Shown here in pieces: positions 1-1,840 of a stretch of DNA of 35,335 nucleotides. Numbering within the stretch: position 1 is the stretch's first letter; each line of letters starts with the position of its first letter. Below the pieces are notes generated by a model that was not told the origin of the DNA, ran no database searches, and saw only the letters and a list, made by a program, of their open reading frames with translations. Source of the DNA: Muribaculaceae bacterium (GTDB lineage: Bacteria > Bacteroidota > Bacteroidia > Bacteroidales > Muribaculaceae); contig JAGATN010000042.1 of NCBI GenBank assembly GCA_017621225.1, positions 1-35,335 of the forward strand, given 5' to 3'. Position numbers and translations under genes: made by a program.

Positions 1-177
1 GATGGTGGCGTCGGGTCGTTTGACCACGGCACCCTTTTTGAACTCCTTGGAAGAGTTCAGGATGATGTCTGTTACGATGTAGCGAGTCTCGCCGTTGTGA
101 GCGACAGAGATTCTTACTTTGTTTCTGCCGCCCTTGACCTCTTTGGATTGGAGCACTACTGCGTTCAAAAGAGCCAT
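1..177 (-). CDS. Tyrosine site-specific integrase, N-terminal part (cut by window edge)
   Basis: Only the first 59 codons are present; the gene reads leftward out of the window from an ATG at 175-177. The visible peptide begins MALLNAVVLQSKEV, continues through KVRISVAHNGETRYI, and ends near KRPDATI. This resembles the N-terminal arm-type DNA-binding domain that precedes the SAM-like and catalytic domains in Bacteroidales tyrosine recombinases. The catalytic Arg-His-Arg-Tyr residues would lie outside the window, so activity cannot be judged. Its 5' end is about 160 bases from a 24-bp repeat at 338-361 that recurs at 1771-1794, the geometry expected of an integrase beside its attachment site. 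Family assignment is from recognition of the N-terminus only; another arm-domain recombinase subfamily is possible. Confidence 0.72.
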   Translation of the reverse strand, partial: MALLNAVVLQSKEVKGGRNKVRISVAHNGETRYIVTDIILNSSKEFKKGAVVKRPDATI

Positions 178-337
178 AATTTCGGACAATTTTCAGGAAA
201 TAAAATTAGCGAAACGGGTTGCTTTTGAGTTGTCGGAAACGCTCAAAACTCGCCGTCTCTGAATGGTATTACTAATTATTCCTTCTGAAATTCAATCCAT
301 TCAGCAATTTAGGTTCTTTTTTACCGCAGAGTTACTC

Positions 338-361
338 AAAAAACGCGATAAATCTGCACAT
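338..361. repeat. Left copy of 24-bp direct repeat (candidate attachment core)
   Basis: A 24-base sequence, starting AAAAAACGCGATAAA and ending CTGCACAT, is identical to 1771-1794. The match ends at both sides (337 c versus 1770 t; 362 t versus 1795 a). It sits upstream of the integrase start, between the integrase and the two-gene cassette. A perfect 24-base match 1.4 kb apart flanking AT-rich DNA beside an integrase is best read as a recombination core. No experiment shows this. Confidence 0.75.
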
Positions 362-407
362 TTAAGTTATTTTTTGTTTTTATCGACATTATGTGTTTTA
401 AAATTGT

Positions 408-425
408 TATCTTCGCAAGAAGATA
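408..425 (+). promoter_or_regulatory. GNRA-loop hairpin/dyad over possible promoter of the cassette
   Basis: TATCTTC (408-414) and GAAGATA (419-425) form a perfect 7-bp stem closed by the tetraloop GCAA, extendable by a G-U and a G-C pair (406-407/426-427). It ends 13 bases before the ATG at 439. Its left arm, TATCTTCG, also resembles a Bacteroidetes -7 element (TAnnTTTG) with one change. No -33 box at good spacing was found. It may be a DNA operator for autoregulation or an mRNA leader hairpin. Confidence 0.4.
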
Positions 426-438
426 GCCGCATAAAAAG

Positions 439-1218
439 ATGGAAGAATCCGGAAAAATAGAAATCAGAGTCATTGGACAAGTGGGCAATGATCCTTTATC
501 TCCCGAAAATTTCGATATTAGGGAGATAAAAAGTCTTTTTGATGTGGTTGAAACTTTGTTATATCCGAATCAAAAGAATAGCCGAGCGCCCATTACTTAT
601 TCTTTAGAATCAGGTTCTGTCAGGAATATTTTTAGAACGACTCGTCAAAGTGCAGCCGCATTTATTGCTATCGTCAGTTTAGTTCAGCAATCAGGATCAC
701 TTGACGGACTGGAATTGCCAACAGCAAGGGCACTCCATGAGGTTCAGAAATCGGCTATTAGGCATAATTTCACATATGAATTTGGAACTCCTTATAATGA
801 TGCGCCATCCTTGACTATATCTAAGGAAACGACTTATCATATTAATGAGGATTTATGGGCTGATGCCGAATTCTATTTTTATGGAGTTCTTGTTAACGCC
901 GGTGGAAAAGATAAAACCAACATACACCTTCTTACAAAAGATAAGGGATTGCTGACTATTGCCACTGAAAAGGAGTATTTACAAAGTTTTGAAAAAAATG
1001 TTTTGTATAAACATTTTATGGTTCGTGCGATAGGTCGTCAAAATATATTGTCCGGAGAACTTGATACATCAAGCCTTCAGCTATTACAATTATCAAATTA
1101 TGATCCGACTTATAATGAGCAGTATCTTGATAATTTGATAAAAAAGGCATCGCCCAAATGGACTGATGTAGCAGATGCGGATAAATGGGTATCTGAAATA
1201 CGAGGAATTAATGGTTAA
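439..1218 (+). CDS. Uncharacterised conserved-looking protein, partner of PIN protein
   Basis: A 259-aa protein with no signal peptide, no membrane segment and no domain I can name. It begins MEESGKIEIRVIGQVGN and contains SPENFDIREI (22-31), an ITYSLESGSVRNIF stretch and a central DAEFYFYGVLVNAGGKDK segment. The C-terminus is WTDVADADKWVSEIRG. The text is compositionally balanced and reads as a real folded protein. I have an unverified impression of similar hypothetical proteins beside PIN genes in other Bacteroidetes. It shares 8 bases with the downstream PIN gene (ATGGTTAA junction), so the two are almost certainly co-translated. It is much larger than the usual 70-100-aa VapB-type antitoxin, so an antitoxin, sensor or substrate-adaptor role are all only guesses. 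Codon use is AT-rich compared with the core genes. The next upstream ATG is not in a better context, so this start is retained. Confidence 0.8.
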   Translation: MEESGKIEIRVIGQVGNDPLSPENFDIREIKSLFDVVETLLYPNQKNSRAPITYSLESGSVRNIFRTTRQSAAAFIAIVSLVQQSGSLDGLELPTARALHEVQKSAIRHNFTYEFGTPYNDAPSLTISKETTYHINEDLWADAEFYFYGVLVNAGGKDKTNIHLLTKDKGLLTIATEKEYLQSFEKNVLYKHFMVRAIGRQNILSGELDTSSLQLLQLSNYDPTYNEQYLDNLIKKASPKWTDVADADKWVSEIRGING

Positions 1219-1726
1219 GAAAAAAGAAGAAACTGAATACAGTGTCATTCTTGACACAAGTTTTATGATTCGTTTATTAAATGAATCTGATAAACTCCAC
1301 TCTAATGCTTTGGGTTATTTCCGTTATTTTCTTGAACATAACATTCCAATGTATTTTTCTACAATCTCAATTGCAGAATATTGTGTTAAAGGAGATTTTC
1401 AAGATTTGCCATTCCAAAATATTCGAGTTTTGCCATTTAATATTTTTCATGCTAAAGAAGCCGGACGTTTTGCAAACACTATTTTTTCTGCAAAGGCAAA
1501 AAACTTGATTGAAATTCCGGATAGATTAATTATACCCAACGACTCCAAATTATTTGCTCAAGGTTCATTTGAAAAGGATATTCGATATTTTGTGACTGCA
1601 GATGTGAAATCAAAAAAGGTCATAGATGTGCTACGCATAGATTGTGCGGCAGGCATAGAGCATCTTGACATAAATATCCCACACACTACACATTATGGTC
1701 TACTCGACTTTGGTCCGGAACAATGA
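1211..1726 (+). CDS. PIN-domain protein (VapC-like nuclease fold)
   Basis: A 171-aa protein. The PIN signature is visible: VILDTSFMIRLL (first Asp, residue 15), STISIAEYC (Glu 56), a PNDSKLFAQ segment (Asp 111) and RYFVTADVKSKKV (Asp 131). Together these supply the acidic cluster that binds Mg2+ or Mn2+ in PIN ribonucleases. The start at 1211 is chosen because it gives an 8-base overlap with the upstream stop and is preceded by GAGG. An in-frame upstream start at 1175 would overlap the previous gene by 44 bases. PIN proteins of this length are commonly RNases in toxin-antitoxin or RNA-processing roles; the target here is unknown. The gene belongs to the AT-rich repeat-flanked cassette with the 259-aa protein and has no other partner. 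The last roughly 30 residues (LDINIPHTTHYGLLDFGPEQ) extend beyond the compact PIN core. Confidence 0.85.
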   Translation: MVKKKEETEYSVILDTSFMIRLLNESDKLHSNALGYFRYFLEHNIPMYFSTISIAEYCVKGDFQDLPFQNIRVLPFNIFHAKEAGRFANTIFSAKAKNLIEIPDRLIIPNDSKLFAQGSFEKDIRYFVTADVKSKKVIDVLRIDCAAGIEHLDINIPHTTHYGLLDFGPEQ

Positions 1727-1770
1727 AATTCGAGTAGAGGCCTGTGCTGTCAAACTCCTGAAAAATAGAT

Positions 1771-1794
1771 AAAAAACGCGATAAATCTGCACAT
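1771..1794. repeat. Right copy of 24-bp direct repeat (candidate attachment core)
   Basis: Identical over 24 bases to 338-361. It lies 44 bases after the PIN gene stop and 80 bases before the crcB start, so it marks the boundary between AT-rich cassette DNA and core-like DNA. If it is an attachment site, the intact chromosomal target would be the crcB upstream region. Confidence 0.75.
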
Positions 1795-1840
1795 ACGGTC
1801 TTTTTTATTCGGCCGGTATGGAAATATCGTGCTTTTTGCC

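What the first reader, a model, noticed from the sequence alone, without database searches (positions are those of the whole stretch)
338..1794. Undescribed-looking two-gene PIN cassette in AT-rich DNA bounded by perfect 24-bp repeats
Seen: a 259-aa protein of no recognised family overlaps by 8 bases a PIN protein with a complete acidic cluster (Asp 15, Glu 56, Asp 111, Asp 131). Both sit alone between identical 24-bp repeats next to an integrase. Known: PIN proteins are mostly RNases, and VapC toxins usually pair with antitoxins of under 100 residues. Inference: a portable toxin-antitoxin-like or defence module with an unusually large partner. The partner could be inhibitor, sensor or RNA adaptor.
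Basis: partly seen in the sequence, partly recalled or inferred. Interest (0 to 1): 0.75.

Follow-up and report, generated by a model that had tools for sequence, protein, structure and literature searches.

The report
Mobile two-gene PIN nuclease pair
A pair of overlapping genes, one for a probable RNA-cutting enzyme and one for an unusually large partner with a predicted nucleic-acid-binding fold, travels as a unit between Bacteroidota bacteria on several kinds of mobile DNA, and looks like an undescribed toxin-antitoxin or defence module.

Summary
Gene A (439-1218, 259 aa) overlaps gene B (1211-1726, 171-aa PIN protein) by 8 nt, between the only exact 24-bp direct repeats in the window. It is a real, conserved two-gene family. 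Of 90 loci, 74 carry both genes intact. In 395 phylum genomes A occurs in 12 and B in 14, including all 12. The genes co-evolve (r = 0.91). The PIN acidic residues are invariant. A matches no described family; its AlphaFold model (pLDDT 81) has an OB-fold at about residues 140-222. The integrase next door belongs to another element ending at about 335. Best reading: a toxin-antitoxin-type PIN module with an OB-fold partner. A sensor- or adaptor-activated defence nuclease remains a live rival. No function was tested.

The parts
338..361 (+). left copy of the exact 24-bp direct repeat
   Evidence: its 20-base core occurs exactly at only two places in the genome
1771..1794 (+). right copy of the 24-bp direct repeat, just upstream of a crcB-type gene (1818-2255)
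368..1713 (+). stretch conserved at 85% DNA identity in L004/L005, i.e. the transferable unit with its upstream region
   Evidence: blastn
408..415 (+). TATCTTCG, near match to the Bacteroidota -7 box TAnnTTTG (L004 has TATCTTTG ending 24 nt before the start); implies a leader of about 19 nt here
   Evidence: TSS spacing from PMC6847099
439..1218 (+). gene A, 259 aa, no described family; presumed inhibitor or partner
856..1104 (+). A residues 140-222: predicted OB-fold domain holding the family signature WADAEFYFYG...GGK...N.H
1117..1203 (+). A residues 227-255: two C-terminal helices, low confidence (blocks at pLDDT 49-61); candidate B-binding tail (inference)
1211..1726 (+). gene B, 171-aa PIN-domain protein, overlapping A by 8 nt; presumed RNase effector
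1253..1255 (+). codon of acidic residue D15
   Evidence: invariant
1376..1378 (+). codon of acidic residue E56
   Evidence: invariant
1541..1543 (+). codon of acidic residue D111
   Evidence: invariant
1601..1603 (+). codon of acidic residue D131
   Evidence: invariant
1..177 (-). N-terminal 59 aa of a phage-type tyrosine recombinase, cut by the contig start; its element appears to end at about 335 and not to include A and B

Best explanation
A and B form an autonomous toxin-antitoxin-type module. B is a PIN-fold, metal-dependent RNase whose activity harms the cell. A is made first and B is translated from an overlapping start, so the partner precedes the nuclease. A holds B inactive, possibly with its C-terminal helices, while its OB-fold binds a nucleic acid (B's RNA target, A's own transcript, or invading ssDNA or RNA) and may set when B is released. 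Such a pair stabilises or protects the mobile DNA carrying it, which would explain its patchy spread in cassettes, phage, plasmid and tRNA-linked sites. Shown here: the pairing, the overlap, the invariant acidic residues, the predicted OB-fold, the mobile contexts, and a weak bias of gene decay. Inferred: RNase activity, inhibition by A, what A binds, and the trigger.
For: Pairing: 74 of 90 loci have both genes intact; 12 of 12 A genomes among 395 also have B, broken in G116; A and B distance matrices correlate at r = 0.91 over 36 pairs, 0 of 2000 permutations as high. Acidic residues are invariant in 39 of 39 and 21 of 21. Partner first with overlapping starts in most loci. Decay bias: intact A with broken or absent B in 6 loci (L037, L056, L069, L072, L080, L089) against intact B with broken A in L075; L066 was also flagged, but by its coordinates its A runs into the contig start. 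P = 0.015 if hits fall by gene length, 0.125 by sign test. The pair brings its own promoter-like box into integron-type arrays; TA cassettes carrying their own promoters are described for the Vibrio superintegron (PMC11023631, passages). No conserved third gene: among 127 neighbour proteins the commonest Pfam family at E<=1e-5 occurs 3 times.
Against: A is 259 aa with a predicted OB-fold and no recognised antitoxin family. Toxicity and inhibition are untested. The decay bias rests on 7 loci, mostly MAGs, where frameshifts may be assembly errors, and is not significant by a plain sign test. A published two-gene PIN system, DS-5, needs both proteins and is judged probably not a TA system (PMC13092281, passages), so a PIN gene with a partner does not prove TA. 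B itself was not folded.
Confidence: 0.52

Rival explanations
1. A two-component defence nuclease: A is a sensor or adaptor whose OB-fold recognises phage or plasmid nucleic acid and switches on or delivers the PIN nuclease B; both proteins are required and B alone is inert.
For: OB-fold predicted in A, many of its best structural neighbours being single-stranded DNA-binding proteins; the pair occurs in a phage-like contig (L121), another viral contig (L122) and a plasmid (L076); DS-5 is a precedent for a PIN gene plus partner that protects against phage and is probably not TA (PMC13092281, passages).
Against: No PADLOC match to A or B; of the 172 PADLOC families hit at E<=1e-10 by 127 neighbour proteins, the 25 shown (ordered by number of members) each match one protein only; A survives without intact B more often than the reverse.
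Confidence: 0.3
2. An RNA-processing or regulatory pair of the mobile elements or host: A brings B to particular transcripts through its OB-fold, with no toxicity or defence role.
For: OB-fold plus PIN is a reasonable RNA adaptor plus RNase combination (inference).
Against: Very patchy: A in 12 of 395 phylum genomes, no fixed neighbour, several mobile contexts; a housekeeping role would give wider, more vertical presence.
Confidence: 0.1
3. For the local anatomy: the 24-bp repeats are the recombination sites of a 1.4-kb non-autonomous element moved in trans by the neighbouring integrase, an AB cassette with its own att sites.
For: Exact 24-bp repeats flank AB and one touches the integrase element end.
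Against: In G672 and G678 the same integrase end is followed, after a short A-rich stretch of partial similarity, by different host DNA without that 24-mer, so the 24-mer looks like target DNA rather than the integrase's own site; A and B have no match in 25 fetched loci around integrase-side matches (19 distinct places); no empty target site was found in 33 other genomes of the genus, where the crcB region aligns only in short pieces.
Confidence: 0.3

Closest known systems
VapBC type II toxin-antitoxin systems
   Same: PIN effector with complete acidic cluster, two-gene operon, partner gene first, overlapping starts, mobile
   Different: partner is 259 aa with a predicted OB-fold; the antitoxin families that Makarova et al. 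2009 pair with PIN toxins (RHH, AbrB, PHD, Xre, MerR, COG2442, COG2880, COG1753; passages, PMC2701414) do not include such a protein in the passages I saw
DS-5 (PIN nuclease plus DUF5830/AcrIF4-like protein; DefensePredictor)
   Same: two-gene system with a PIN nuclease and an uncharacterised partner (passages, PMC13092281)
   Different: no member of the A alignment matches DUF5830 in Pfam at E<=1; the two PIN proteins were not compared
Toxin-antitoxin cassettes of sedentary chromosomal integrons (Vibrio)
   Same: two-gene cassette with its own promoter-like box in an attC array in several relatives
   Different: the window copy is not in an attC array; the arrays lie in Bacteroidota or Chlorobi MAGs without a recombinase over the canonical IntI cut-off (0 of 13 genomes)
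OB-fold single-stranded nucleic-acid-binding proteins (Rim1/SSB, RecO, RPA, IF1)
   Different: 4-20% identity, no Foldseek match at E<=0.001; the N-terminal domain of A was not tested alone

Membership tests
VapBC toxin-antitoxin system | effector with PIN fold and four conserved acidic residues | tested here: met
   PF01850 in 34 of 39 members at E<=0.01; the window's own member is not among them (0 families, E = 0.01); D15/E56/D111/D131 invariant. The fold of B was not predicted.
VapBC toxin-antitoxin system | small partner (typically under 100 aa) carrying a known antitoxin DNA-binding domain | tested here: not met
   A is 259 aa; the 14 Pfam families that any of 44 members hit at E<=1 are weak (one or two members each) and include no antitoxin family; 0 of 22 match any NCBIfam family at E<=0.01
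VapBC toxin-antitoxin system | partner gene first, overlapping or coupled to the toxin gene | tested here: met
   exception: 12-nt gap in the Bordetella plasmid
VapBC toxin-antitoxin system | toxin harmful alone and neutralised by partner | not testable with these tools
   bench test needed; decay bias 6 against 1 is indirect
VapBC toxin-antitoxin system | operon autoregulated by the partner | not tested
   a palindrome-like stretch upstream of A in L009 was seen by eye but not tested
DS-5 type PIN defence system | partner with DUF5830 | tested here: not met
   DUF5830 is not among the 14 Pfam families that any of 44 A members matched at E<=1
Known anti-phage systems in PADLOC 2.0.0 | profile match of A or B | tested here: not met
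   0 families for both window proteins at E<=1
Integron gene cassette (for relatives) | unit bounded by folded attC sites | tested here: met
   attC model R1 hits directly after B in 11 loci: L023, L029, L033, L037, L041, L042, L045, L046, L047, L066, L072 (weakest: L037 E = 0.03, L041 E = 0.001); both sides in L042, L046, L047, L072. R1 was trained on sites of L042, L045, L046, L047, L072. Stem covaries in 11 of 12 pairs. Only 3 of 8 sites fold better than shuffles.
Integron gene cassette (the window copy) | unit bounded by folded attC sites | tested here: not met
   no R1 hit in the window at E<=0.05
OB-fold protein (A) | five-stranded barrel with helix between strands 3 and 4 (definition recalled) | tested here: met

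The most novel reading that the evidence does not exclude
AB is a previously undescribed, nucleic-acid-sensing PIN system. An OB-fold protein, often made from a leaderless GTG-started mRNA, binds single-stranded nucleic acid of an invader or of stressed cells and unleashes or guides a PIN RNase. The pair is traded between Bacteroidota through integron-type arrays run by long tyrosine recombinases that fall below the canonical IntI cut-off.
Probability: 0.25. Interest if true: 0.78.

Novelty: new variant of a known kind. Interest (0 to 1): 0.6.

Why it matters
PIN nucleases are among the commonest toxin-type effectors, but their known partners are mostly small DNA-binding proteins. A stable pairing with a 260-aa OB-fold partner, carried by several unrelated kinds of mobile DNA across Bacteroidota and beyond, would be a new architecture for controlling a PIN RNase, and two genes make it easy to test. 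The predicted leaderless start ties it to an unusual mode of translation in this phylum, and its attC arrays point to an under-described integron world in Bacteroidota.

Tried and rejected
Housekeeping reading: rejected for patchiness (12 of 395) and lack of any annotation. Pair as cargo inside the neighbouring integrase element: rejected because the element end recurs in G672 and G678 with other DNA after it and A and B have no match in the 25 loci searched. Those 25 are 19 distinct places with matches to window 1-362, four longer re-fetches of such places and two target-like sites; several are under 2 kb. Defence-island membership: not supported (only 25 of 172 families were shown, each matching one of 127 neighbours). 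Shared phage record for window 1-1830: no DNA match; A has no match in 50,697 phage records and one in 72,556 plasmids. The 24-mer core has no exact match in IMG/VR. The third genomic copy of the core was set aside as a chance 3-mismatch match.

Full report
WHAT IS IN THE WINDOW. Gene A (439-1218, 259 aa) and gene B (1211-1726, 171 aa) overlap by 8 nt and lie alone between two exact 24-bp repeats, 338-361 and 1771-1794. No other exact direct repeat of 24 nt or more exists in the window, and the 20-base core occurs exactly only at these two places in the 2.53-Mb genome. The stretch between the repeats has 35% GC against 51% to the right. On the left, 1-177 minus encodes the first 59 aa of a tyrosine recombinase, 52.5% identical to that of Bacteroides phage BF1-TP2. 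The contig starts inside it. On the right stands a crcB-type gene.

THE INTEGRASE IS PROBABLY NOT THE PAIR'S OWN. A stretch 96% identical to window 1-350, with the same integrase-side end, opens contig G672:C82. A 94% match to window 259-345 closes G678:C141. In both, close identity ends near ...ACCGCAGAGTT(AC); after a short A-rich stretch of partial similarity, different host DNA without the 24-mer follows. Neither A nor B has a match in 25 loci fetched around integrase-side matches, which are 19 distinct places, four longer re-fetches and two target-like sites, several under 2 kb. The integrase element therefore seems to end at about position 335, and AB to have been inserted separately beside it. 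The 24-mer looks like duplicated target DNA or a shared recombination core; I cannot say which. In L004 and L005 homology to the window runs from 368 to 1713 at 85% DNA identity, so the conserved unit is the two genes plus their upstream region.

A CONSERVED PAIR. One scan of 84,980 species genomes with A gave 72 loci, by their titles mainly Bacteroidota, some Chlorobi and Ignavibacteria. Profiles of both genes were run over 90 loci: these 72, 12 loci of genome-wide hits, 5 viral or plasmid loci and one B-only locus, with a few duplicates. A and B are both intact (at least 90% of the model in one frame) in 74. A is intact with B cut by the contig end in 4, and with B broken or absent in 6. A is broken with B intact in 2, of which L066 is by its coordinates a contig-start truncation. 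The other 4 have both genes broken, absent or cut. In the same 395 phylum genomes A occurs in 12 and B in 14. All 12 A genomes have B, though it is broken in G116 and missing beside a second A in G112. The two B-only genomes hold a C-terminal fragment (G249) and a marginal match (G384, E = 6e-4). Distances between A proteins and between B proteins correlate at r = 0.91 over 36 pairs, with 0 of 2000 permutations as high and a maximum of 0.36. Distant pairs, 20-31% identical to A of the window, exist in a Bordetella bronchiseptica plasmid (L076), viral contig L122 and genomes G198 and G279, still A then B.

B. PF01850 (PIN) matches 34 of 39 members at E<=0.01. The window's own member is borderline: E = 0.01, below the curated cut-off, and not listed. 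D15, E56, D111 and D131 are invariant in 39 of 39 and in 21 of 21. No PDB sequence matches the profile at E<=1. B was not folded, because the machine was busy.

VEHICLES. (a) Integron-type arrays. In L046, same-strand genes for a metallo-beta-lactamase-fold protein, DUF6155, DUF6843, a hydrolase, an unknown, AB, an unknown, an ArsA-type ATPase and an Lcl_C protein are separated by sites of about 135-150 nt with R''/R'-like boxes. A covariance model from 15 such sites has a 12-pair stem with both-side changes in 11 pairs. It finds 47 matches at E<=0.05 in 83 sources. Sites lie directly after B in L023, L029, L033, L037, L041, L042, L045, L046, L047, L066 and L072, and on both sides in L042, L046, L047 and L072. 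L042, L045, L046, L047 and L072 supplied the training sites; the others are independent, L037 and L041 being the weakest. Direct repeats between the upstream and downstream flanks exceed all 250 mismatched-pair controls (maximum 37) in 7 of 65 loci, the window among them with a score of 49. Weak results are listed under Tried and rejected. (b) Viral contigs L121 and L122, two of four IMG/VR contigs found with A; the terminase-like protein beside the pair in L121 is my reading of the sequence, not a family search. (c) A plasmid. (d) tRNA-linked sites: the upstream flank of L008 holds what reads as a tRNA gene, and L009 and L005 have tRNA-3'-end-like sequence nearby (by eye, no tRNA search run on them).

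PROMOTER. In 37 of 66 loci an exact Bacteroidota -7 box TAnnTTTG ends 4 nt (32 loci) or 5 nt (5 loci) before A's start codon, which is GTG in 40 of 66. Among 404 control ORFs from the same loci, 13 show a box 2-9 nt before any ATG or GTG in the first 31 codons; with a relaxed box the counts are 47 of 66 and 41 of 404. Fisher P is 5e-26, or 2e-8 on 29 members under 80% identical, of which 11 have the box. In F. johnsoniae 4-5 nt is the distance from the -7 box to the transcription start, and 87% of transcripts have leaders over 10 nt (PMC6847099, section 14 read in full). In B. thetaiotaomicron about 3.7% of 5' UTRs are under 10 nt (PMC7366714, passages). A is thus predicted to be leaderless in many hosts. 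The Muribaculaceae-type loci L004, L006, L007 and L009 instead have the box 18-25 nt upstream; the window (TATCTTCG at 408-415) and L008 have no exact box.

FUNCTION. Partner first, overlapping start, RNase-type effector, its own promoter-like box inside cassette arrays (as for TA cassettes of the Vibrio integron, PMC11023631, passages), patchy mobile spread, and decay that hits B more than A (6 against 1; P = 0.015 by gene length, 0.125 by sign test) together favour a toxin-antitoxin logic. The OB-fold, the viral contexts and the precedent of DS-5, a PIN gene with a partner where both are needed and loss of the partner does not free toxicity (PMC13092281, passages), keep a sensor- or adaptor-type defence nuclease open. 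The antitoxin families of PIN toxins in the passages I saw of Makarova et al. (PMC2701414) include none like A. My paper searches listed no title or abstract start that describes this pair; I saw listings only, apart from the papers named here and passages of PMC10440598 and PMC3710099, which say nothing of such a pair. The library lacks most subscription papers and preprints.

SIDE FINDING. In 13 genomes whose AB loci had shown attC-like or repeated flanks, no recombinase passes the TIGR02249 (integron integrase) cut-off. Most of the best hits fall into two pieces that leave out model positions about 180-236; those of G741 and G742 run through but score far below the cut-off. Completeness of these genomes is not told. 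All six regions fetched around the best-scoring recombinases of five genomes (L161-L166) contain attC sites, several within 1 kb downstream of the recombinase. Of 12 short loci around such hits, six have attC sites. Four of the recombinases (578-593 aa) carry the R, K, H-x-x-R, H and Y that I know as catalytic; the one in L165 is shorter (open frame 399 aa). IntegronFinder 2 names one complete integron in Bacteroidetes proper, in Salinibacter ruber (PMC9024848, passages). Searches listed no title or abstract start on such recombinases.

Noticed in passing
L161 7383-9164 with attC 9642, 11166, 12128; L162, L163, L164, L165, L166: Long tyrosine recombinases (open frames 546-603 aa; 399 aa in L165), below the integron-integrase cut-off of TIGR02249, lie in the same regions as attC arrays in Bacteroidota MAGs. 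They may be the integrases of a non-canonical integron type.
   Followed up: partly
L159 and L160: Shorter recombinases (open frames 326 and 322 aa) in two further genomes also lie beside attC sites, so more than one integrase type may serve these arrays.
   Followed up: no
window 1-337; G672:C82 start; G678:C141 end: Contigs break at the same integrase element end in three genomes, as expected for a repeated mobile element; its far end was not seen.
   Followed up: partly
L014 11264-11653, L017 11295-11684: A second, weakly B-like ORF about 4 kb downstream of the pair in two Dyadobacter genomes.
   Followed up: no
L004: Contig binned as Candidatus Saccharibacteria carries the pair in flanking DNA that looks nearly identical to Bacteroidales locus L005, so it is probably a binning error.
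   Followed up: no
L009 upstream of 6001: Palindrome-like TTATGTTTTAAAACATAA upstream of A in one Muribaculaceae locus, with similar stretches in L008 and the window; a possible operator (by eye).
   Followed up: no
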